From Macrosoma leucophasiata (Eukaryota > Arthropoda > Insecta > Lepidoptera > Hedylidae), in NCBI GenBank assembly GCA_036365455.1, contig JAWQUS010000016.1, forward strand, positions 13,539,001 through 13,603,000: 64,000 bases of DNA, read 5' to 3'. Under the pieces are notes generated by a model, which ran no database searches, was not told the origin of the DNA, and saw nothing but the letters and a program-made list of their open reading frames with translations. A program made the translations under genes and the position numbers. Within the stretch, counting starts at the first letter, position 1, and each line of letters starts with the position of its first letter. Of this stretch, positions 6,055 through 62,434 are shown one piece after another.

Positions 6055-6256
6055 TAGCTATATTGATTTTCTCCAATAACACATGCGAGTGAATTTTTTA
6101 CTGCCACTAAGGCAATGCAATAAATGTGATGGAAGAATTCGACAATCAGGTGTGGACTTCAGTAGCTCAGTTGGGAGAGCGGCTGGACTAGAAATCCCAG
6201 TAGTCGCGGGTTCAAGCCCCGCTTGAAGTCAATTTTTTCTTTTCTTTATTCTTAAA
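6055..6256 (+). mobile_element. tRNA-carrying element family T, old single-unit copy (T1)
   Basis: The order is a 5' block (aataacacatgcgagtgaa), a spacer with 'caatgcaataaatgtgatgg', a tRNA-like sequence, and a T-rich then A-rich 3' end. The same order occurs in the younger member at 53.5 kb. The flanks near 6040-6054 and 6249-6263 agree at about 12 of 15 positions, so a decayed target duplication is possible but not secure. Confidence 0.65.
6155..6230 (+). tRNA. tRNA-like gene (pseudo-tRNA), isotype not assignable
   Basis: This 76-nt cloverleaf has a perfect 7-bp acceptor stem (GACTTCA/TGAAGTC), a 4-bp D stem (GCTC/GAGC) and a 5-bp T stem (GCGGG/CCCGC) around TTCAAGC. The A-box (TAGCTCAGTTGG) and B-box (GGGTTCAAGCC) are intact. 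The anticodon arm is abnormal: CTGG pairs with CCAG around a 10-nt loop (ACTAGAAATC) instead of 7. A run of six T lies directly downstream. It is probably a tRNA-derived mobile sequence rather than a decoding tRNA. Confidence 0.6.
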
Positions 6257-7440
6257 AAAAAACAATTCTGGCTGTTAAACCGTTCAACTGTTGAGTCATG
6301 ATAAAACCATTTTTTCTGTATTAAAAAAAATCTGCTAAAAATAGATATGACAGCTAATTACCGTGAGTTTTCATAAAAAAGGAATATATCCCGATGAAAC
6401 AATGTCTTTGTCCTCAAAAGGTCAATGCCAAGCTTTTTCACGACGTGATTTCTCCCAGAATCGCACAATCAAAAGTTGAAATCTCCACGGTGGCTTAGAA
6501 CAAAGGGCGGAAAAGTTAAATGGGGGCTATTTTATCTGTGGACGGGGGTGGTTGTAAGGGCAACAAATTGAATAATTATTCCGCGGTATTGTCCTCTCGG
6601 TGTGTCGATAATCGCACAGTTGACCCGGTTCCTTTGTTAGGAGGCAGTTCTACAAAATAGCCCATAAGCTGAGCCGCTACTTCGGCCATATCCAGTGACC
6701 CTTGACAGAATTGAGCGGTTGATACTATCGGATGTTAAAAAGAAGGGTCTTAATGTAATTGTGTTTCGATTCACGAGTCACATACGCTTGTGTAGTAGAT
6801 GTATGATTCGTACGGAGCGAAGGACAAAACATATACAATCCGAATGTTGATGGTTGCAAAAGCCCAAGAAGACTATAGGCGCACTTTAATGTCTTTGCCT
6901 TCGGCGGCGTCGTGTGACGGGTTGCTCACTTCCCTTCAAAATGGTCGAGGAGAGCAATGGCTGCCACATGCGTCATACTCGTGAACGGGTGCTGATTGTG
7001 GGGACTGGTCTGTTGTGATTTGCGGGTGTTATATTCTATCACGATATTAAGCTGTTGATGGGTATTTGCGTATGTGTTTATATGCAAATATTTATATGCC
7101 ACGGACGTTCACATTATCTTTATTCTATGTAATAATATTTGTATTAAATGTAAGGTTTTGACAAAAGATCAACACGCTGAGTTTGTTGGATAGCGGAGTT
7201 CTTCTCAGTTGTGCCTGCACGTGAATGACTATGATTATGACGAACAGATTTTTCTTTTTCTTCTATGAAGGGATTGAAAAATTTGATGATTCACGTATCG
7301 GTTAAATATTATTATTAAATTGGTATTTATTAATACCTATTGGATTATTATTAATAAGTCATTCTCTCTAGGTAGCTTACAACCCGACAATGCAAAAGTA
7401 TCCTTGTAGACCAATTTGAAATAAATGATTTGAATTTTGA
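6257..7440. other. No gene seen; unique-looking DNA
   Basis: There is no recognisable coding or repeat family. The short ORF at 6799-6984 shows no motif. The stretch around 6590-6720 is more GC-rich than its surroundings but gives no interpretable signal. Confidence 0.4.
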
Positions 7441-19324: not shown

Positions 19325-20300
19325 TTAAAAAACATTCAATATGAAATCCAATCAATTAACAGCGACCAAATGTTACTCCATCCTTCAGATAATGCGCTGA
19401 TTGACAAAGCTCTCGGTTAGGTGCGATCAGTATCGGTCCTTTATTCATAAGCAGATAGCGGTCTCGGTGTCGTCTCCAGTGAATAATCCTATCTATTTCA
19501 AATGCATCACCTTCACACGTAAAGTGCCTGTACGATACTTCTTCACGATTCCTTGATTTATACCAATGTCGTAGTAGGTCCGAGTCTGTTGGAATTTCAC
19601 ACTTCTATCAGCTTCTATGATTGTCCTTATAGCAGCAATGCTAACTTTAGTAGTTGCCATAGAAGGTCGGTCTTCTAGTGATTCATTAATGCATTCTTTA
19701 ACAAAGCTTTCGGTTCGGTGCAATGAGTAGCAATCCTTAATTCATAAGCAAATAGCAGTTTCGGTATCGTCTCAGGTGAATATCCTATCTATTTCAAATT
19801 CATCACCTTCGTACGTGAAGTCCCTATACGACATACGACACTTCTTCACGATTCTTTGATTTATACTTATGTCGTAGTTTGCCCGAGTCTGTTGGAATTT
19901 CACTCTTCTATCAGCTTCTATCATTATTTACACAGCAGCAATGTTAACTTTAGTAGTTGCCGTAGAAGGTCGTTCTTCTATGGCCACTACTAATTGACAA
20001 CGCTTTAGGTGCTGATTGCACTTAACCGAGAGCGTTGTCAAACAATCAGCAGTAGTAGCAATCTTTTATTCATAAGCATATAGCGGTCTCGGTGTCATCT
20101 CGAGTGAATATCCTATCTATCGCAAAATCTTGCTCACACATAAAAATATCTTGTCATCACACATATATATTTCTTGAGGATTTCTGTTCTACGTGATTGC
20201 ATAGTTTTCTAGATGTATTTCGTGTTTCCAAAACAGCATTCGTTGAGCCAATGTTTTCCCAAATCTGCAGATTGTCACTCTTTTATCACATCAGGTACAT
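19325..20300 (-). pseudogene. Tandem array of mariner transposase N-terminal fragments
   Basis: Three copies of a roughly 300-330-bp unit are marked by 'agcggtctcggtgtcgtct' at about 19454 and its variants near 19750 and 20078. Minus-strand translation of the first gives EDRPSMATTKVSIAAIRTII, then EADRSVKFQQTRTYYDIGIN. The second gives ERPSTATTKVNIAAV with a stop. This resembles the linker and second helix-turn-helix region of mariner transposases (RPSTATTxxNIxAVRxxIEEDRRVTYQQI). No unit has the catalytic domain. A fourth copy is at 22030-22300. The mariner assignment is mine, from the motif. Confidence 0.5.
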
Positions 20301-26660: not shown

Positions 26661-26807
26661 CATTTTACGTTATGTTCTATAATTAATGAATACTCAACAC
26701 TCAATTCACATTCATCGGAAGCATTACCAAATCGAAGTGGTGGATTGGACTCACATAGTGCCGTATAATCAATAAATTTCTTATGTAATCATAAAATACC
26801 ACAGACA

Positions 26808-26882
26808 TCGGTAGCTCAGTTGGGAGGACGCCTGGACTAGAGATCGCAGTGGTCGCGGGTTCAAATCTCTGAAGTATTTTTT
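26808..26882 (+). tRNA. Degenerate tRNA-like sequence of family T
   Basis: The A-box region (GGTAGCTCAGTTGGGAGGACG) and B-box (GGGTTCAAATC) are recognisable. 'cctggactagagatcgcag' matches the anticodon region of the family. The acceptor and T stems are broken, so it is a relic, not a gene. Confidence 0.5.
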
Positions 26883-26949
26883 TCACTCGATATAACTTCA
26901 ATAATAAATGGTGTTTTTTTTTTATGTAGTGAGATTGACAAATGTCATT

Positions 26950-27075: not shown

Positions 27076-27357
27076 ACATATTAATAGGTACACGTAAAGT
27101 TGGGATATTACTTTATCCTTACGAAACCCATAGTGTAAGGTGTTATAATATAGGTCTATGAAAAACATAGTGTTTGAGACAACCATTTCACGATCAAGGC
27201 AACCCTTTTTTAAACTATTAGATTTAAAAGTGTAATTTTTTGTTAGAGTCAAGTGTCTCCCCCTCTGCCAAACGGTGGCAGATATTTGAACTTCGTAAAA
27301 GACATGATAATATTATAGTTAACACGTTCGTTTTCTTTAGACTGTGATAATAGTATA

Positions 27358-27471
27358 TATTATTCGCAATAACACATGCGAGTGAAATATTTTTTAAAGA
27401 AATATGGTAAAAAAAATATCCCCCCTGAAGTCAATTAAATTCAAATTTTCTTTCCATTTTTCCTTAAAAAA
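27358..27471 (+). mobile_element. tRNA-carrying family T, internally deleted copy (T3)
   Basis: It begins with the family 5' block (attcgcaataacacatgcg, agtgaaat). It then shows a TTTTTTAAAGAAA block and jumps to the tRNA 3' end and 3' arm ('cctgaagtcaa', 'ttttctttccatttttcc', TTAAAAAA). A perfect 13-bp duplication TGATAATAGTATA flanks it at 27345-27357 and 27472-27484. Most of the tRNA is gone. It proves both family termini. Confidence 0.8.
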
Positions 27472-28499
27472 TGATAATAGTATAACGAAATTAAAAGGAA
27501 TAGTATCACAGCTAAATAGACTTCACAACTTTACGAGTAATATTCGATCAACTATCAAGTCGAACTACAAGAAAATTAACTTGAAAAAGCCGAATACGGT
27601 TTTTTTATACCTCTATAGAAATGATAGGAGCGCGAATGCCGATTGAAATTGTTGTCTTATTGTTATTGGTATCCGTTTTTCATGTCAATTTACAAAACAA
27701 GTTTCCTATAAGCTTCAAGATATTTTTGATCCGTAAGTAGGTATCTTGAAACGTGCCTCTTTTATATTTACTCGTATCAACGGCTAAGATTATGTTTCCA
27801 GGATGAAATACATGATAGAAAATTTAAATGAATTCGCTACAGACACGTATTTCCTCCCTCACGAGGTGTCCTCCTTATCGATATCATAAGATTGTGACGT
27901 GACAAAATTATGTGTCGAGTCAGCTCGATCACATTGAATTTTTTAATGTTTAAAGTGTTCATGGGTGATACAGCGTTTCATGGTAGGGGCTCGAGTCACA
28001 ACCTCGTTATAGTACCGAAGACAATTTTCTTCGTGCACCTCCCCCACAAATGTGATTACTCCGCTTACAGCTCTAAGACAAAACTTCTGTAATTGTGTTT
28101 TCAAGAAGTTTTTGGTTATGTAAATCTTAATTTACAATGTAATACTCGGACTTTCTCGAGCAATATAATCCTACTGAAAAATTTTCCTCTCATAAAATTT
28201 AATTTCAAACAATTCCGTTCCCTTATTAAATTTCCAAAAACATAATATAGGAAAGGACATGTCTTTTTTAATATAAAGCTCGATCCTGAGATTTGACCAA
28301 TACTCCTCGATTCGTTAATTGAAGGCAGGACCCTGGCGTAGCAGATGTGGCCTGCTATCGCTAGACCATCGAGGTAGTTGACCGTTGAACGTCTGTCTAC
28401 TCTCGAGGCTCTTATTGTTTCACCTTCTTTTAATATATAGGCCATTGTAATTATCTAACATGACATAAATCCTCCTCCTTAGTCGTTCACTCTTGACAG

Positions 28500-34207: not shown

Positions 34208-34216
34208 AGATAAATA

Positions 34217-34265
34217 AATATTTTTAAAGAAAGAACGCATGTGTTAATGCGAAATAATATAAAAC
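34217..34265 (-). mobile_element. tRNA-carrying family T, minimal copy (T4)
   Basis: On the minus strand it reads the family 5' terminus (gttttatattatttcgc, attaacacatgcg) joined directly to the 3' end (ttctttctttaaaaat). It is flanked by AGATAAATA at 34208-34216 and 34266-34274. The flank is AT-rich, so chance is possible. However, the element stops exactly where the 41-44 kb array stops. Confidence 0.6.
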
Positions 34266-34317
34266 AGATAAATATATCTCTGTGATTGCCAGGAATAGAG
34301 ACATATCTTAGTTTTCG

Positions 34318-38867: not shown

Positions 38868-39312
38868 TTAAAGGCTGATTCACACATATCTGGGAAGACA
38901 CTGTTCCGACATAGTACTTACCGTCAACGTGAAAGTATGGAACATTCTGTTGATACCTATTTTTATCATTAAGTATTTTTGGACTATAATTTATTTTATT
39001 TTGTTTACTTTGACATATTAATCAACGTATCAGTTGTTATTCGCTTTAATTTTATATTTGTGATTTGACCTATCACAAGCAAATTCTATTATTTCCAAGT
39101 GATTAAATCAATTTTTGAGTTTAAGTTTGAGTTTGATAATTATTATTTCTACATTTTCTATTAACGTCACTGACAACTAGTCAGAATACTGCGTCGTCAA
39201 TGACACTGACTGGTGTGGATACCGGCCTAGAAAATGTATGAAATAATAATTATCACAGTGACGATACTGCGCCGGAATTGTGACTTCACTGATATGTGTG
39301 AATCAGCATTAA
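38868..39312. mobile_element. TTAA-flanked MITE
   Basis: The terminal repeats are AGGCTGATTCACACATAT and its complement (one mismatch), with TTAA at both edges (38868-38871, 39309-39312). Inside is a second inverted pair (39135-39160 with 39230-39256, tgataattattatttc type). The overlapping ORFs near 38.5-38.8 kb lie outside and have no motif. Confidence 0.75.
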
Positions 39313-39334
39313 GAAAAAAAAAATAAAATAGTTC

Positions 39335-39420
39335 GGGCGTGACTTGACTTCGCGGTCACTGGGATTCCTAGTCCAGCCTCTCTCCCAACTTGTTTACCGA
39401 AGTTTACATCTAACCGACGA
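39335..39420 (-). tRNA. Degenerate tRNA-like sequence of family T (T5)
   Basis: On the minus strand 'ggtaaacaagttgggagag' leads into 'gctggactaggaatcccag' and 'gaccgcgaagtcaagtc'. The family's anticodon-arm core survives, but the A-box, T stem and acceptor stem are broken. The 10-nt loop (ACTAGGAATC) matches that of the 6.2-kb copy. Confidence 0.5.
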
Positions 39421-39539
39421 TTTTTTCCTTGACATTTTTCCTACATCAGATTTTTCGTATCGTTGAAAAATTATTACCGAAATTATTATAGGTTCATCTA
39501 ATTTACTTGCCACAGATAATCAAAAAGATCACTGATTAG

Positions 39540-41277: not shown

Positions 41278-41389
41278 GACTATTACTTACCACGAATGTG
41301 AAAATTTCGCTCGTTTTCCCCTTTATGACATAAAAATATTAAAATATCTATTAATCATTTTTATTTTTAAAGAAATGAAAGAAAAATTT

Positions 41390-41465
41390 GACTTCAGGCG
41401 AGGCTCGAACTCGCGACCTACTGGGAATCTAGTCCAGCCGCTCTTCCAATTGAGCTACTGAAGCC
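41390..41465 (-). tRNA. tRNA-like gene 1 of 10 (left arm)
   Basis: This 76-nt cloverleaf has acceptor stem GGCTTCA/TGAAGTC with one G-T pair, D stem GCTC/GAGC, and T stem GCGAG/CTCGC around TTCGAGC. The anticodon arm pairs CTGG with CCAG around a 9-nt loop ACTAGATTC, so no anticodon can be named with confidence. TTTTT follows three bases after the 3' end, a Pol III terminator. Confidence 0.65.
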
Positions 41466-41694
41466 CTGCCCGATTTGTCGAATTCTTCCTTCACATCTAT
41501 TGCATTGGTTTATGGTACCAGTAGCGCCATCTATTACCAACTATGCTAGTTAGGCAACCGATATAATAGACTTTTCAGTTTATTGAATATCGTAAAGAAG
41601 TCGCTTTTACCCTTAATAATTGTTTTATATTATTTCGCATTAACACATGCTTGTGAAATATATTTTTATTTTTAAAGAAATGAAAGAAAAATTT

Positions 41695-41770
41695 GACTTC
41701 AGGCGAGGCTCGAACTCGCGACCTACTGGGAATCTAGTCCAGCCGCTCTTCCAATTGAGCTACTGAAGCC
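41695..41770 (-). tRNA. tRNA-like gene 2 of 10 (left arm)
   Basis: Its sequence is identical by eye to gene 1, displaced by 305 bp. Confidence 0.65.
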
Positions 41771-41999
41771 CTGCCCGATTTGTCGAATTCTTCCTTCACA
41801 TCTATTGCATTGGTTTATGGTACCAGTAGCGCCATCTATTACCAACTATGCTAGTTAGGCAACCGATATAATAGACTTTTCAGTTTATTGAATATCGTAA
41901 AGAAGTCGCTTTTACCCTTAATAATTGTTTTATATTATTTCGCATTAACACATGCTTGTGAAATATATTTTTATTTTTAAAGAAATGAAAGAAAAATTT

Positions 42000-42075
42000 G
42001 ACTTCAGGCGAGGCTCGAACTCGCGACCTACTGGGAATCTAGTCCAGCCGCTCTTCCAATTGAGCTACTGAAGCC
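42000..42075 (-). tRNA. tRNA-like gene 3 of 10 (left arm)
   Basis: Same sequence and spacing as its neighbours; middle unit of the left arm. Confidence 0.65.
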
Positions 42076-42304
42076 CTGCCCGATTTGTCGAATTCTTCCT
42101 TCACATCTATTGCATTGGTTTATGGTACCAGTAGCGCCATCTATTACCAACTATGCTAGTTAGGCAACCGATATAATAGACTTTTCAGTTTATTGAATAT
42201 CGTAAAGAAGTCGCTTTTACCCTTAATAATTGTTTTATATTATTTCGCATTAACACATGCTTGTGAAATATATTTTTATTTTTAAAGAAATGAAAGAAAA
42301 ATTT

Positions 42305-42380
42305 GACTTCAGGCGAGGCTCGAACTCGCGACCTACTGGGAATCTAGTCCAGCCGCTCTTCCAATTGAGCTACTGAAGCC
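42305..42380 (-). tRNA. tRNA-like gene 4 of 10 (left arm)
   Basis: Same sequence and 305-bp spacing. Confidence 0.65.
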
Positions 42381-42609
42381 CTGCCCGATTTGTCGAATTC
42401 TTCCTTCACATCTATTGCATTGGTTTATGGTACCAGTAGCGCCATCTATTACCAACTATGCTAGTTAGGCAACCGATATAATAGACTTTTCAGTTTATTG
42501 AATATCGTAAAGAAGTCGCTTTTACCCTTAATAATTGTTTTATATTATTTCGCATTAACACATGCTTGTGAAATATATTTTTATTTTTAAAGAAATGAAA
42601 GAAAAATTT

Positions 42610-42685
42610 GACTTCAGGCGAGGCTCGAACTCGCGACCTACTGGGAATCTAGTCCAGCCGCTCTTCCAATTGAGCTACTGAAGCC
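42610..42685 (-). tRNA. tRNA-like gene 5 of 10 (left arm, innermost)
   Basis: This is the last minus-strand unit. Its upstream region runs complete to the loop at 42776-42841. Confidence 0.65.
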
Positions 42686-42931
42686 CTGCCCGATTTGTCG
42701 AATTCTTCCTTCACATCTATTGCATTGGTTTATGGTACCAGTAGCGCCATCTATTACCAACTATGCTAGTTAGGCAACCGATATAATAGACTTTTCAGTT
42801 TATTGAATATCGTAAAGAAGTCGCTTTTACCCTTAATAATTGCCTAACTAGCATAGTTGGTAATAGATGGCGCTACTGGTACCATAAACCAATGCAATAG
42901 ATGTGAAGGAAGAATTCGACAAATCGGGCAG

Positions 42932-43007
42932 GGCTTCAGTAGCTCAATTGGAAGAGCGGCTGGACTAGATTCCCAGTAGGTCGCGAGTTCGAGCCTCGCC
43001 TGAAGTC
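42932..43007 (+). tRNA. tRNA-like gene 6 of 10 (right arm, innermost)
   Basis: This is the first plus-strand unit. Its upstream region starts abruptly at 'gcctaactagcatag' (42842), lacking the outer 66 bp present in other units. Confidence 0.65.
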
Positions 43008-43236
43008 AAATTTTTCTTTCATTTCTTTAAAAATAAAAATATATTTCACAAGCATGTGTTAATGCGAAATAATATAAAACAATTATTAAGGGTAAAAGCG
43101 ACTTCTTTACGATATTCAATAAACTGAAAAGTCTATTATATCGGTTGCCTAACTAGCATAGTTGGTAATAGATGGCGCTACTGGTACCATAAACCAATGC
43201 AATAGATGTGAAGGAAGAATTCGACAAATCGGGCAG

Positions 43237-43312
43237 GGCTTCAGTAGCTCAATTGGAAGAGCGGCTGGACTAGATTCCCAGTAGGTCGCGAGTTCGAGCC
43301 TCGCCTGAAGTC
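43237..43312 (+). tRNA. tRNA-like gene 7 of 10 (right arm)
   Basis: Identical by eye to gene 6, displaced by 305 bp, with a complete upstream region. Confidence 0.65.
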
Positions 43313-43541
43313 AAATTTTTCTTTCATTTCTTTAAAAATAAAAATATATTTCACAAGCATGTGTTAATGCGAAATAATATAAAACAATTATTAAGGGTAA
43401 AAGCGACTTCTTTACGATATTCAATAAACTGAAAAGTCTATTATATCGGTTGCCTAACTAGCATAGTTGGTAATAGATGGCGCTACTGGTACCATAAACC
43501 AATGCAATAGATGTGAAGGAAGAATTCGACAAATCGGGCAG

Positions 43542-43617
43542 GGCTTCAGTAGCTCAATTGGAAGAGCGGCTGGACTAGATTCCCAGTAGGTCGCGAGTTC
43601 GAGCCTCGCCTGAAGTC
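43542..43617 (+). tRNA. tRNA-like gene 8 of 10 (right arm)
   Basis: Same sequence and spacing; middle unit of the right arm. Confidence 0.65.
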
Positions 43618-43846
43618 AAATTTTTCTTTCATTTCTTTAAAAATAAAAATATATTTCACAAGCATGTGTTAATGCGAAATAATATAAAACAATTATTAAG
43701 GGTAAAAGCGACTTCTTTACGATATTCAATAAACTGAAAAGTCTATTATATCGGTTGCCTAACTAGCATAGTTGGTAATAGATGGCGCTACTGGTACCAT
43801 AAACCAATGCAATAGATGTGAAGGAAGAATTCGACAAATCGGGCAG

Positions 43847-43922
43847 GGCTTCAGTAGCTCAATTGGAAGAGCGGCTGGACTAGATTCCCAGTAGGTCGCG
43901 AGTTCGAGCCTCGCCTGAAGTC
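43847..43922 (+). tRNA. tRNA-like gene 9 of 10 (right arm)
   Basis: Same sequence and spacing. Confidence 0.65.
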
Positions 43923-44151
43923 AAATTTTTCTTTCATTTCTTTAAAAATAAAAATATATTTCACAAGCATGTGTTAATGCGAAATAATATAAAACAATTA
44001 TTAAGGGTAAAAGCGACTTCTTTACGATATTCAATAAACTGAAAAGTCTATTATATCGGTTGCCTAACTAGCATAGTTGGTAATAGATGGCGCTACTGGT
44101 ACCATAAACCAATGCAATAGATGTGAAGGAAGAATTCGACAAATCGGGCAG

Positions 44152-44227
44152 GGCTTCAGTAGCTCAATTGGAAGAGCGGCTGGACTAGATTCCCAGTAGG
44201 TCGCGAGTTCGAGCCTCGCCTGAAGTC
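44152..44227 (+). tRNA. tRNA-like gene 10 of 10 (right arm, outermost)
   Basis: This is the last unit. Its downstream arm ends 'gcgaaataatataaaac' directly before the right target duplication. Confidence 0.65.
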
Positions 44228-44751
44228 AAATTTTTCTTTCATTTCTTTAAAAATAAAAATATATTTCACAAGCATGTGTTAATGCGAAATAATATAAAAC
44301 ATCTATTAATCATGATTATCGTCACACTTATATCGTGATTCCCGAGTTCTTCTATTACGTTAAGCCACGTGCTATTTAAGTTGATCGTTCCTGTATAGAG
44401 AGGAACAAGTGGGATGAAGCCATAAGCTTATTCAGAGGCAGCGATACTTTAGCCTCTTTCATATGGTCACCGAGCGCAGTGAAAAATGATATTTACTGGT
44501 AATGCTGCAGGTCTTTTGAAAACATTCGGTATTGTGTCCGAGCAAGGACAATTTTTATCGTGTATGGCTCGTATTACACTTCACGCTAGTGATGAATGAT
44601 GCCTTTTATTGCTGTGAACGGTGAATGGCTTCCTTTTTTTTGTGTTCCAAAACTTAAACCATCTATACTGTAGTCTTTGTGTCCGTCAGGAAAAGCCTGC
44701 TTTTTATGAAATTAGCATAGGTACCCAAAATGTTGTTCTTTTAAATAGGTC

Positions 44752-45965: not shown

Positions 45966-47267
45966 AATAGGTTGGGGAAAAAGTCTTTTCGCATTATAGT
46001 ATGTATGAACTTGTAATAAAATCTCTTTGGCTGTAGTATTTGTATCTGGCTGGTTTTGGTATCATTGAAAGTTAAAATTTTAAAGAACATAATTCCAAAT
46101 TCAAATTAGGCAAATGTGTGATTTTCATTTGTTTTTCGTACTGTCAAGATGAGTGAATCTAATGAAGAAATTCGATACATTTTAAAATTTTACTACAAAA
46201 AAGGTAAAAATGCAACGCAAGTCGCGAAAAAAATTTGCGATGTTTATGGACCTAGTGCAGTGTCTGTGAGAGTAGCACAAATTTGGTTTAAGCGTTTTCA
46301 ATCCGGAAATTTTGATGTCAAAGATGCACCTCGCTCTGGTTGCCCTATTACGGATAAAATGGATGCCATTTTTGAAAAAGTGGAGCAAGATCGACATATC
46401 AGTAGTTACGACGTAGCTGAAGAACAGAGAATTGATCACAAAACAGTTTTGGCGCATTTGAGAAAAGCTGGGTACAAAAAAAAGCTCGATATTTGGGTAC
46501 CTCACGAGCTCACTGAAAGAAACCTAATGAACCGTGTACTCATTTGTGATTCTTTATTACGACGTAATGAAACCGAATCATTTTTGAAGAAGCTGATAAC
46601 TGGTGATGAAAAGTGGATCACGTACGACAAGAACGTGCGAAAAAGGTCGTGGTCAAAGGCCGGTCAGGCTTCACAGACTGTGGCGAAACCCGGGTTAACT
46701 CGCAATAAGGTGATGTTTTGTGTGTGGTGGGATTGGAAGGGCATTATTCATTATGAGCTATTACCACCAGGCAGGACTATCGATTCTAAATTCGACAACT
46801 CAACTGCGAACAACTGATGAGATTAAAGCAAGAAGTTGAAAGAAAGCGGCCGGAATTGATCAACAGAAGGGGTGTGTGGGTGGGGTGTTTCATCATGATA
46901 ACGCTAGACCTCACACATCTATAGCCACTCAGCAAAACTTAAAAGAGTTTGGCTGGGAGGTGTTAATGCATCCGCCGTATAATCCTGACTTTGCACCTTC
47001 AGATTTCCACCTTTTTCGGTCTCTTCAGAATTCTTTATGCAATGTTAGATTAACATCACGAGAGGACTGCCAAATCCACTTGTCGCGGTATTTTGATGAG
47101 AGGTCCCAAAATTTTTTAGCAATGGGATCATGTCCCTACCTACAAGATGGCAAAAGGTTATCGAACAAAATGGTACATACATACTTTAGTTAAATTTAAA
47201 TAAACTATATTAAAAAATGTTTTGAATTATCTTAAAAAATGCGAAGAAACTTTTTCCCCAACCTTAT
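45966..47267 (+). mobile_element. mariner element, copy 1
   Basis: The left end 'ataggttggggaaaaagtc' (45967) and right end 'gactttttccccaacc'-like (tttttccccaaccttat, 47251-47266) are inverted repeats, with TA at the borders. The length of about 1.3 kb is typical of mariner. It is inserted in the 506-bp tandem repeat. Confidence 0.9.
46149..47193 (+). pseudogene. mariner transposase, frameshifted
   Basis: The ORF opens MSESNEEIRYILKFYYKKGK and runs to 46817: two helix-turn-helix regions (about residues 1-110), then the catalytic start with ITGDEKWITYD (first Asp, about residue 153). An insertion of about 8 bp near 46790 and another of about 8 bp near 46872 shift the frame. Reading resumes at 46876 with FHHDNARPHTS and PDFAPSDFHLF. 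There are 34 residues between the second and third Asp, the D34D mark of mariner. A further 1-bp loss alters the C-terminus. The 61.2-kb copy lacks these lesions, which is how they are recognised. This copy makes no active enzyme. Confidence 0.9.
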
Positions 47268-53500: not shown

Positions 53501-53527
53501 CTACCAGAAAGACGGACAAACGGACAG

Positions 53528-53904
53528 TTGTTTTATATTATTTCGCATTAACACATGCTTGTGAAATATATTTTATTTTTAAAGAAAATATTTCACATAT
53601 ATTTCACAAGCATGTGTTAATGCGAAATAATATAAAACAATTATTAAGGGTAAAAGCGACTTCTTTACGATATTCAATAAACTGAAAAGTCTATTATATC
53701 GGTTGCCTAACTAGCATAGTTGGCAATAGATGGCGCTGCTGCTACCATAAAGCAATGCAATAGATGTGAAGGAAAGATTTGACAAATCGGGCAGGACTTC
53801 AGTAGCTCAATTGGAAGAGCGGCTGGACTAGATTCCCAGTAGGCTGCGAGTTCGAGTCTCGCCTGAAGTCAAATTTTCGTTCCATTTTTCTTTAAAAATA
53901 AAAT
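53528..53904 (+). mobile_element. tRNA-carrying family T, single-unit copy (T7)
   Basis: It begins with the 5' block (ttgttttatattatttcgc, attaacacatgcttgtg), then TATTTTTAAAGAAA, then an inverted copy of the 5' block (cacaagcatgtgttaatgc). The same upstream region as the 41-44 kb units follows, then one tRNA-like gene and the 3' end CTTTAAAAATAAAAT. A perfect 10-bp duplication AAACGGACAG flanks it (53518-53527, 53905-53914). A few base differences separate it from the array units. Confidence 0.85.
53795..53870 (+). tRNA. tRNA-like gene of the single-unit T copy
   Basis: The acceptor stem GACTTCA/TGAAGTC is perfect here, whereas the array copies have one G-T pair. The T stem GCGAG/CTCGC is intact around TTCGAGT. 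The anticodon arm has the same 9-nt loop ACTAGATTC. Confidence 0.6.
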
Positions 53905-54004
53905 AAACGGACAGTGTTTTAACCCAGGGGGCGGGCTCGCAAAAAAATAATAGAGTTAAACTGAAATCTAATTTTAAAAATCCACACACCAATTCACTTA
54001 TCAC

Positions 54005-54110
54005 CATTTCAATGGGTCTTTGGTAGTTTATAGTCATCCAAGAGGTCGGAGGTTCGAATTCCGTCAGATACCAAAATTTTCTTTCCATTTTTTCCATTCA
54101 CACACTTGTG
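54005..54110 (+). tRNA. Second, diverged tRNA-like relic
   Basis: 'tttggtagtttatagtcat', 'ccaagaggtcggaggttcg' and 'aattccgtcagatacc' keep a B-box (GGTTCGAATTCC) but a poor A-box. The 3' flank 'aaaattttctttccatttt' and 'acacacttgtgttacg' resemble those of family T, so it may be a sister tRNA element. Confidence 0.4.
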
Positions 54111-61155: not shown

Positions 61156-62434
61156 ATAAGGTTGGGGAAAAAGTTTCTTCGCATTTTTTAAGATAATTCA
61201 AAACATTTTTTAATACAGTTTATTTAAATTTAACTAAAGTATGTATGTACCATTTTGTTCGATAACCTTTTGCCATATTGTAGGTAGGGACATGATCCTA
61301 TTGCTATAAAAATTTTGGGACTTCTCATCAAAATACCGCGACAAGTGGATTTGGCAGTCCTCTCGTGATGTTAACCTAATATTACATAAAGAATTCTGAA
61401 GAGACCGAAACAGGTGGAAATCTGAAGGTACAAGGTCAGGACTATACGGCAGATGCATTAACACCTCCCAGCCAAACTCTCTTATTTTTTGCTGAGTGGC
61501 TATAGATGTGTGAGGTCTAGCGTTATCATGATGAAACACCACACCCCTTCTGTTGATCAATTCCGGCCGCTTTCTCTCAACTTCTTGCTTTAATCTCATC
61601 AGTTGTTCGCAGTAGAGTTCAGAATCGATAGTCCTGCCTAGTGGTAATAGCTCATAATGAATAATGCCCTTCCAATCCCACCACACACACAACATCACCT
61701 TATTGCGAGTTAACCCGGGTTTCGCCACAGTCTGTGAAGCCTGACCGGCCTTTGACCACGACCTTTTTCGCACGTTCTTGTCGTACGTGATCCACTTTTC
61801 ATCACCAGTTATCAGCTTCTTCAAAAATGATTCGGTTTCATTACGTCGTAATAAAGAATCACAAATGAGTACACGGTTCATTAGGTTTCTTTCAGTGAGC
61901 TCGTGAGGTACCCAAATATCGAGCTTTTTTGTACCCAGCTTTTTTCAAATGCGCCAAAACTGTTTTGTGATCAATTCTCAGTTCTTCACGTCGTAACTAC
62001 TGATATGTCGATCTTGCTCCACTTTTTCAAAAATGGCATCCATTTTATCCGTAATAGGGCGACCAGAGCGAGGTGCATCTTTGACATCAAAATTTCCGGA
62101 TTGAAAACGCTTAAACCAAATTTGTGCTACTCTCACAGACACTGCACTAGGTCCAAACATCGCAAGTTTTTTTCGCGGCTTGCGTTGCATTTTTACCTTT
62201 ATGGTAGTAAAATTTTAAAATGTATCGAATTTCTTCATTAGATTCACTCATCTTGACAGTACGGAAAACAAATGAAAATCACCCATTTGCCTAATTTGAA
62301 TTTGGAATTATGTTCTTTAAAATTTTAACTTTCAATGATACCAAAACCAGCCAGATACAAATACTACAGCCAAAGAGATTTTATTACAAGTTCATACATA
62401 CTATAATGCGAAAAGACTTTTTCCCCAACCTATT
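61156..62434 (-). mobile_element. mariner element, copy 2
   Basis: The inverted ends 'ataaggttggggaaaaagt' (61157) and 'gactttttccccaacctat' (62415-62433) match copy 1 in reverse, with TA at the borders. The element is inserted in Helitron sequence. Confidence 0.9.
61234..62251 (-). pseudogene. mariner transposase, copy 2, broken in the N-terminal half
   Basis: The start codon lies at about 62249. The N-terminal part is broken by a 2-bp loss near 62155, a 4-bp loss near 61990 and a 2-bp loss near 61930, judged against copy 1. The C-terminal part is open for 215 codons: ITGDEKWITYD, then HHDNARPHTS and PYSPDLVPSDFHLF, with 34 residues between the second and third Asp. The catalytic region is therefore intact, while the DNA-binding region is not. 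The lesions differ from those of copy 1. Confidence 0.9.

What the first reader, a model, noticed from the sequence alone, without database searches (positions are those of the whole stretch)
41346..44313. A 2.94-kb palindrome of ten tRNA-like genes inserted as one element
Seen: five 305-bp units in minus orientation and five in plus orientation around a 66-bp loop, all identical by eye, bracketed by a perfect 13-bp direct repeat (ATCTATTAATCAT). The outer ends are one copy of the family 3' end and one copy of the family 5' end, exactly as in a single-unit element. Inference: either a multimeric palindrome was inserted in one step, or a single inserted copy expanded internally by inverted template switching. 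Known tRNA clusters and SINE arrays do not normally have a single pair of element termini and one target duplication around an inverted decamer.
Basis: partly seen in the sequence, partly recalled or inferred. Interest (0 to 1): 0.92.

Follow-up and report, generated by a model that had tools for sequence, protein, structure and literature searches.

The report
Two-ended palindromic tRNA-bearing retroelement arrays
A small jumping gene carrying a tRNA-like segment seems to be copied into the genome from both ends of each cut at once, sometimes going round its template many times, which leaves palindromes of up to sixteen near-identical units and may show in genomic DNA how a poorly understood class of retroelement inserts.

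Summary
In detail: window 41359-44300 is a 2,942-bp insertion with five tRNA-like units in each orientation, no mismatch between units, inside one 13-bp target duplication. It is not a one-off. Of 43 loci of the family inspected in the same 616-Mb genome, 35 have an internal inversion (by eye) and 28 an exact target duplication of at least 11 bp (2% in a mismatched-locus control). The two outer ends are constant to within about 10 nt: end A in minus, end B in plus orientation, 42 nt apart in the unit. This resembles the published signature of Penelope-like elements (two reverse-transcription start sites flanking a 'tail', both target strands cut and extended). Seven more inverted multimers (5-16 units) were found. 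In the six young ones, full units within an array differ by at most one substitution, while arrays differ from each other, so each array was probably copied repeatedly from one monomer, perhaps a circular RNA. Best reading: a non-autonomous, Penelope-type, retrozyme-like element inserted by two-ended target-primed reverse transcription. Open or against: no hammerhead motif, no helper enzyme found, no RNA data, unequal arms in several arrays. New variant of a known kind.

The parts
41346..41358 (.). left copy of the 13-bp target site duplication ATCTATTAATCAT
44301..44313 (.). right copy of the target site duplication
41359..42842 (-). B-arm: minus-orientation arm, starts outside at end B (unit position 263) and runs 4.86 units inward to unit position 1/305; five tRNA-like genes
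42840..44300 (+). A-arm: plus-orientation arm, starts outside at end A (unit position 305) and runs 4.79 units inward to unit position 65; five tRNA-like genes
42840..42842 (.). TTG shared by both arms at their junction
42778..42839 (.). 62-bp loop of the palindrome: the inner part of the minus arm (about unit 1-64) that has no partner in the plus arm
   Evidence: derived
44259..44300 (+). terminal 42-nt tail (unit 264-305) between end B and end A; a small hairpin GCAU/AUGC is predicted but is not more stable than shuffled sequence (z -1.1 to -1.5)
43386..43690 (+). one complete 305-bp unit in the rotated numbering used here (position 1 = 43386)
43402..43485 (+). predicted three-way junction (unit 17-100): hairpin 1 = 43415-43448, hairpin 2 = 43449-43474; the B-arm inner-end cluster falls at the boundary 43448|43449 (unit 63|64)
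41389..41465 (-). tRNA-like gene 1 (also 41694-41770, 41999-42075, 42304-42380, 42609-42685 on the minus strand)
42932..43008 (+). tRNA-like gene 6 (also 43237-43313, 43542-43618, 43847-43923, 44152-44228 on the plus strand)
   Evidence: Rfam tRNA 49.4 bits on the four plus copies inside the stretch searched
53529..53904 (+). single-body copy with inverted A tail; target duplication AAACGGACAGT at 53518-53528 and 53905-53915
27358..27471 (+). minimal copy: A-arm joined to B-arm with almost no body; target duplication TGATAATAGTATA at 27345-27357 and 27472-27484
34217..34265 (-). 49-bp minimal copy consisting of little more than the two ends; 9-bp target duplication AGATAAATA at 34208-34216 and 34266-34274
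6057..6265 (+). old degenerate copy: remnant of inverted A tail followed by body and tRNA-like domain; no exact target duplication found

Best explanation
A non-autonomous retroelement of about 305 nt, carrying a tRNA-like domain, is inserted by a Penelope-type reverse transcriptase acting on both ends of one staggered target cut. One target 3' end primes cDNA at RNA site A, the other at site B, 42 nt upstream in the same unit (the counterpart of the Penelope 'tail'). Each cDNA runs towards the RNA 5' end; the two are joined head to head with little or no homology, and the stagger is filled to give duplications of about 9-16 bp. If the template is a linear RNA beginning near unit position 64, the result is a short inverted copy. 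If the template is a closed monomer (most likely a circular RNA, joined at or near 63|64), each reverse transcriptase can go round repeatedly and leaves homogeneous multi-unit arms such as the 5+5 decamer. Shown: constant ends A and B, inversion, target duplications, homogeneous arrays, inner-end cluster at 64-66. Inferred: Penelope-type enzyme, circular template, RNA 5' end at 64. My separate estimates: two-ended priming at fixed sites 0.85; Penelope-type enzyme 0.65; repeated copying of one monomer 0.7, of it as a circle 0.55.
For: (1) Ends: by eye 31 of 43 loci have A at one end and B at the other around an inversion. In the match table the outer end of the A-arm lies at unit 304 to 9 in 25 of the 26 two-armed copies with a listed A-arm (L035: 14), and the outer end of the B-arm at 254-274 in all 28 with a listed B-arm, at 261-265 in 17. 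An automatic end-typing gave 27 A/B of 46, 11 A plus unclear, 6 B plus unclear, 2 A/A, 0 B/B (L037 is a false A/B and L046 a false A/A there). (2) Exact target duplications of at least 11 bp at 28 of 43 loci against 8 of 400 mismatched-locus pairs; the site of L033 is seen unfilled in two diverged paralogues (70-73% identical), each with one copy of the duplicated stretch. (3) Frangieh et al. (PMC11167929, parts 1-2 of 4 of the text read) report that a Penelope-like protein cleaves and extends both strands and starts reverse transcription at two adjacent internal sites delimiting the 30-40 bp tail. (4) Eight inverted multimers: window 10 tRNA-like units, C22 10, C26 8, C4 16, C16:7.08 Mb 16, C13 11, C6 6, C9 5. 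In the six young ones substitutions between full units are 0 (window), 1 (C22), 0 (C26, outside the junction unit), 0 (C4, only A-run length changes), 0 (C16, one 1-base indel), 0 (C13). Consensus units of four arrays differ: C26 carries two and C4 one substitution not in the other three, and unit lengths differ. (5) B-arm inner ends: 7 of 29 hand-curated values fall at unit 64-66 (0 of 3000 random sets as high), the boundary of two predicted hairpins.
Against: No helper was found: GIY-YIG PF01541 gave one match in the genome; that profile may miss Penelope endonucleases (my inference). No hammerhead: Rfam, core-motif scan and a genome-wide pattern at chance level (15 matches against 19 in the reversed control). 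Eight of 43 loci are one-armed or unclear and one (L056) looks B/B by eye; L074 lacks end B and L075 a duplication. Arms are unequal in several multimers (B/A in units about 6.6/3.9, 0.65/5.0, 1.5/2.9; L033 2.09/0.31). A-arm inner ends do not cluster. Direct, non-inverted arrays of about 3 units exist too (L082), and two further loci (C28, C32) show matches in one orientation only (not fetched). A tandem source RNA from an already homogeneous array would also give homogeneous arms. The T5 run after the tRNA-like domain would stop Pol III before the tail (established knowledge), so the template RNA must be made otherwise.
Confidence: 0.6

Rival explanations
1. Same two-ended insertion, but the template is a linear multimeric RNA transcribed from a homogeneous tandem array; no RNA circle exists.
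For: Penelope-like loci are tandem, and the published scenario has an mRNA of multiple copies (PMC11167929, part 2). Long arrays that could be transcribed exist, and direct arrays of about 3 units occur (L082; C28, not fetched). In the window the B-arm ends at unit 1/305 and the two arms are of similar length.
Against: C26 carries two and C4 one substitution in all full units that the other arrays lack, so a monomer-to-multimer step is needed after each variant anyway. Among the loci fetched the arrays longer than about 3 units are all inverted; the search lists are capped, so this is not a genome-wide statement.
Confidence: 0.22
2. A LINE reverse transcriptase with 5' inversion by twin priming, plus end-to-end template jumping between monomer RNAs.
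For: Inverted insertions with target duplications and small junction homologies resemble twin-primed LINE copies (established knowledge); a paper on human retrotransposition uses the term often (PMC12016303, search listing only). Jumping on RNAs of one locus would also give identical units.
Against: Twin priming leaves a variable outer end of the inverted segment (established knowledge); here the outer A end lies at unit 304 to 9 in 25 of 26 listed copies. No extra or missing base is seen at the 63|64 seam in the full units aligned.
Confidence: 0.12
3. A single two-armed copy was inserted and each arm was later expanded in the DNA by unequal exchange or replication slippage.
For: Would also give homogeneous arrays with one pair of termini and one target duplication; homogenisation of tandem repeats is ordinary (established knowledge; no call bears on it).
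Against: Both arms would have to expand separately. Seven of the eight multimers have at least 1.5 units in both arms, whereas none of the other 30 copies in the arm table has at least 1.0 unit in both arms. Substitutions between full units are 0-1 per young array.
Confidence: 0.08
4. Assembly artefact (collapsed or inverted reads).
For: Perfect palindromes are prone to misassembly (established knowledge), and no reads were available.
Against: Eight arrays with different target duplications, unit numbers and junctions; dozens of short inverted copies; paralogous unfilled sites for L033.
Confidence: 0.03

Closest known systems
Penelope-like elements (PLEs), e.g. Poseidon of Anolis carolinensis (PMC11167929, parts 1-2 of 4 read) and Pen2a of Adineta vaga (PMC3846280, passages)
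   Same: Two adjacent reverse-transcription start sites delimiting a tail of 30-40 bp (42 here); both target strands extended; inverted partial copy at one end; tandem units; target duplications (8-10 bp in the passages read; some copies there have none); tail optional.
   Different: No reading frame, no hammerhead motif, a tRNA-like domain in every unit, units of only about 305 bp and homogeneous inverted arrays of up to 16 units. No PLE partner was identified in this genome.
Metazoan non-LTR retrozymes (PMC7229834 and PMC7761336, passages)
   Same: Non-autonomous, G+C below 50%, 150-450 bp, tandem units, target duplications longer than 4 bp; the published model has a reverse transcriptase making cDNA longer than one unit from a circular RNA.
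   Different: Defined by a type I hammerhead ribozyme, which was not found here; the model does not name the helper, and the passages seen do not describe two-ended palindromes.
tRNA-derived SINEs of Lepidoptera (PMC8010984, passages)
   Same: Short, abundant, tRNA-like domain.
   Different: Here the tRNA-like part is internal, followed by a T run and then by the end sequences, and copies are inverted and two-ended.
Short nonautonomous Penelope elements of heliconiine butterflies (PMC6685494, passages)
   Same: Short nonautonomous Penelope-type elements reported in Lepidoptera.
   Different: No structure is described in the passages seen, so whether they are the same kind could not be checked.

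Membership tests
Penelope-like element (mechanism) | two reverse-transcription start sites about 30-40 nt apart (tail) | tested here: met
   ends A (305) and B (263), 42 nt apart. Inferred from insertion ends, not from enzyme assays
Penelope-like element (mechanism) | inverted partial copy at one end within one target duplication | tested here: met
   31 of 43 loci by eye with A and B ends; duplications
Penelope-like element (mechanism) | insertion into A+T-rich targets | tested here: inconclusive
   duplications look A+T-rich but were not compared with local composition
Penelope-like element (autonomous) | reading frame with reverse transcriptase and GIY-YIG endonuclease | tested here: not met
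   units of about 305 bp; PF01541 gives one genomic match; helper not found
Penelope-like element | minimal hammerhead motif in the terminal repeat | tested here: not met
Metazoan retrozyme | tandem unit of 150-450 bp, non-coding, with target duplications over 4 bp | tested here: met
Metazoan retrozyme | type I hammerhead ribozyme | tested here: not met
   (searched RF00008, there named Hammerhead_3, and its controls rang nowhere)
Metazoan retrozyme | circular RNA in cells | not testable with these tools
   no RNA data
tRNA-derived SINE | tRNA-like 5' head driving Pol III transcription | tested here: not met
   tRNA-like domain at unit about 162-236, internal, followed by TTTTT; transcription itself not testable
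LINE twin priming | outer end of the inverted segment at variable positions | tested here: not met
   outer A end at unit 304 to 9 in 25 of 26 listed copies

The most novel reading that the evidence does not exclude
An animal retroelement without a hammerhead that propagates as a small circular RNA. Its conserved predicted three-way junction (unit about 17-100) is itself a new self-cleaving and ligating RNA, cut at 63|64 between two stacked hairpins. A Penelope-type enzyme copies the circle from both ends of one target cut by rolling-circle reverse transcription, leaving palindromic arrays.
Probability: 0.2. Interest if true: 0.93.

Novelty: new variant of a known kind. Interest (0 to 1): 0.78.

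Why it matters
How Penelope-like elements insert, and which enzyme moves animal retrozymes, are open: a review states that the metazoan repeats show no motif that tells which retrotransposon machinery they use (PMC7761336, passages). Here the end structure points to a Penelope-type enzyme. The family is abundant: three copies in 50 kb sampled by coordinate, which by my arithmetic extrapolates to some tens of thousands (Poisson 95% range about 8,000-108,000). Two-armed copies record both priming sites, both arm lengths and the junction of an event, and the homogeneous arrays may record how often a reverse transcriptase went round its template. Simple RNA and in vitro tests can decide the main points.

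Tried and rejected
Exact-pattern searches for the family in viral contigs and genome contigs, and blastn in plasmids, found nothing; these collections are of viruses, prokaryotes and plasmids. In phages (22 records, 20 listed) the query hit tRNA-like stretches only (tRNA-Phe annotated in the Streptomyces phages; no feature in the Aeromonas rows). A hammerhead was sought and not found (one search is weak because its controls rang nowhere). The whole-window Rfam scan at gathering scores listed only the tRNA-like stretches at 6156 and 53796, not the ten of the decamer, whereas a scan of 43120-44320 found four of them at 49.4 bits; I did not find out why. An unfilled site for the decamer was sought with its joined flanks: no listed match spans the insertion point (40 of 1,223 candidates scored). 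Besides L033, the flanks of L044 also match a paralogue across the insertion point, but in a simple repeat, so it was not counted. A covariance model was built (R1) but is not accepted for a search of this genome. Pfam PF26215, recalled as possibly Penelope-linked, is not in the library. I first thought that arms are always nearly equal (first four arrays); refuted it and the claim is withdrawn. Covariation of the three-way junction could not be judged: its pairs hardly vary among 15 sequences; only the small helix at unit 103-117 has pairs with changes on both sides, two of them. A snap-back copy of one arm was rejected because the outer ends differ by the 42-nt tail.

Rows dropped or adjusted before counts: the inner-end values (29 B, 28 A) were typed by hand. 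They leave out L034, L037, L041, L052, L056, L063, L067, L069 and W_6, and the unclear values of L039, W_27 and W_34. Values at shared bases were chosen by me: the window as 1 (B) and 65 (A), where one search prints 305 and 68; L032 A as 71, where one search prints 89. Arm rows of L039, L052 and L055 are mis-oriented or one-armed; L039 and L055 were read by eye, L052 from the matches. By-eye class counts: 31 two-armed A/B, 4 other inverted (L034, L056, L067, W_6), 8 one-armed or unclear (L037, L039, L041, L042, L053, L055, L060, L063). In L031, L038 and L050 the B end lies some 8-15 nt inside the usual place. Search lists are capped (40 candidates scored of 150, 3,064 and 728), so the eight multimers are a lower bound and biased to copies like the queries; C28, C32, C20 and others were not fetched.
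Full report
OBSERVATION. The structure is as described. The insertion is 41359-44300 (2,942 bp) within a 13-bp target duplication. Units repeat with period 305 and no mismatch in either arm, and there are five tRNA-like genes per strand. In a rotated numbering (position 1 = window 43386), the outer left end is unit 263 (end B) and the outer right end is unit 305 (end A); unit 264-305 is a 42-nt tail. The minus arm runs from B inward over 4.86 units to position 1/305. The plus arm runs from A inward over 4.79 units to position 65. They share TTG at the junction.

FAMILY STRUCTURE. Other copies in the window have the same two ends and are themselves inverted: 53529-53904, 27358-27471 and 34217-34265, the last being little more than the two ends. 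A whole-genome search placed the window in a 616-Mb, 61-contig genome and returned 102 matches with 40 of 150 candidates scored. I fetched 38 loci and added five from the window. By eye, 31 of 43 have A at one end and B at the other around an inversion, 4 more are inverted with other ends, and 8 are one-armed or unclear. In the match table the outer A end lies at unit 304 to 9 in 25 of 26 listed copies, and the outer B end at 254-274 in 28 of 28 (261-265 in 17). A rough automatic typing of 46 loci gave 27 A/B and no B/B. Exact target duplications of at least 11 bp occur at 28 of 43 loci, against 8 of 400 mismatched pairs. To avoid search bias I took five 10-kb stretches by coordinate only: three copies, all inverted. 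One (L074) lacks end B, starting at unit 183 instead, but has a 12-bp duplication; for L075 none was found; L076 has an 11-bp one, seen by eye after the script had missed it. Two diverged paralogous repeats show the site of L033 unfilled, with one copy of the duplicated stretch. No such site was found for the decamer.

ENDS AND JUNCTIONS. In most rows end A varies over a few nucleotides (GTTTT to AATTGTTT). In L035 priming lies about 8 nt further out, where the target resembles the RNA; this may be priming by annealing. Junctions have 0-4 nt of homology or fillers of up to 61 nt. B-arm inner ends cluster at unit 64-66 (7 of 29; 0 of 3000 random sets reach this) and more loosely at 64-80 (13 of 29); A-arm ends do not cluster. 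Of the four B-arms, one ends at 65 (L085), one at 80 (L084), the others at 236 and 97. RNAalifold on 23 contiguous, very similar copies predicts a three-way junction in which hairpin 1 ends at 63 and hairpin 2 begins at 64. Positions 13-95 differ less between copies than the rest of the unit: mean pairwise mismatch 0.016-0.032 against 0.041-0.061. I read 64 as the 5' end of a linear template, and 63|64 as a possible cut and ligation point; this is inference. Pair counting on 15 sequences finds changes on both sides only in a small helix at unit 103-117, so the three-way junction itself is untested by covariation.

MULTIMERS. Besides the window (10 tRNA-like units) there are inverted multimers at C22 (10), C26 (8), C4 (16), C16:7.08 Mb (16), C13 (11), C6 (6) and C9 (5). 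Target duplications: 13, 15, 13, 12, 13 and 16 bp exact for window, C22, C26, C4, C16 and C13, and 15 bp with one mismatch for C6 (a T-rich stretch) and C9. Substitutions between full units: window 0, C22 1, C26 0 outside the junction unit, C4 0 (A-run length varies, as slippage would give), C16 0 with one 1-base indel, C13 0; C6, apparently older, has 7 variable columns in 4 full units, and C9 one in 2. Consensus units of four arrays differ: unit lengths 305, 307, 309 and 310, two substitutions only in C26 and one only in C4. The simplest reading is that each array comes from a single monomer copied many times. An older inverted array (L081) has an extra AAT in the three tail copies read, and its units are 240 of 244 and 211 of 218 identical. 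Arm lengths in units, B/A: window 4.9/4.8, C22 4.7/4.9, C26 3.7/3.7, C4 8.1/7.6, C16 about 9.1/7.3, C13 6.6/3.9, C6 0.65/5.0, C9 1.5/2.9. They are similar in some arrays but not in all. Direct arrays of about 3 units also exist (L082), and C28 and C32 show one orientation only in the list; they were not fetched.

MECHANISM. In a Penelope-like element studied in vitro, the protein cleaves and extends both target strands and starts reverse transcription at two adjacent internal sites; the segment between them is the 30-40 bp tail of genomic copies (PMC11167929, parts 1-2 of 4 read). A typical Penelope copy in Adineta vaga has an inverted terminal repeat, a 31-bp tail and a 9-bp duplication (PMC3846280, passages). 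Our A and B ends, 42 nt apart and in opposite orientation at the two sides, are what two such cDNAs would leave if each remains in the product. A linear template starting near 64 explains the many short B-arms. Homogeneous arrays need a template that can be read repeatedly; a circular monomer is simplest. [quoted passage not shown] Against this reading stand the missing hammerhead, the missing helper and the absence of RNA data.

KNOWN OR NEW. It works like a Penelope-type element and, for the arrays, like a retrozyme, but fails a defining feature of each (hammerhead; reading frame), so it is filed as a new variant and not as a member. Literature searches used; none of the listed titles or abstract starts describes palindromic homogeneous multimers of a tRNA-bearing Penelope-type element. 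The library lacks most subscription papers, and most listed papers were not opened.

Noticed in passing
window 46149-46817 (+) and 61234-61881 (-): Two incomplete mariner-type transposase frames (Pfam Transposase_1 in both, HTH_48 in the first) with a shared near-identical protein stretch; probably two copies of one family.
   Followed up: partly
unit 103-117 (e.g. window 43488-43502): A 4-bp stem around the loop ACCAUAA reads UGCC/GGCA, UGCU/AGCA or UGGU/ACCA in different subfamilies, i.e. two pairs with changes on both sides, suggesting selection on RNA structure.
   Followed up: partly
L069 units (C4 array), A-run before end A: The only variation between 13 full units is the length of an A run (unit lengths 309-312, one 330), as expected from polymerase slippage at each pass.
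   Followed up: partly
L055 (C29:1512700-1514700): B-only copy ending at unit 66 whose other side carries a near-copy of the target sequence instead of an A-arm.
   Followed up: no
L031 junction (about 2380-2520): Junction filler of 61 nt made of several small back-and-forth copies of unit about 50-73, as if the enzyme switched strands repeatedly at the hairpins.
   Followed up: no
window 41359-44300: Whole-window Rfam scan at gathering scores missed the ten tRNA-like stretches of the decamer although four of them score 49.4 bits when a part is scanned alone.
   Followed up: no
window 19404-19980: Tandem duplication of about 303 bp, 83% matches; the family profile gave no match there.
   Followed up: no
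window 26804-26908, 39311-39437, 54032-54092: Old tRNA-like remnants matched by the family's body profile, suggesting a long history of activity.
   Followed up: no
G000 C18:13405300-13406700 (L082): Older direct array with a partial unit starting inside the tRNA-like domain; internal organisation not resolved.
   Followed up: no
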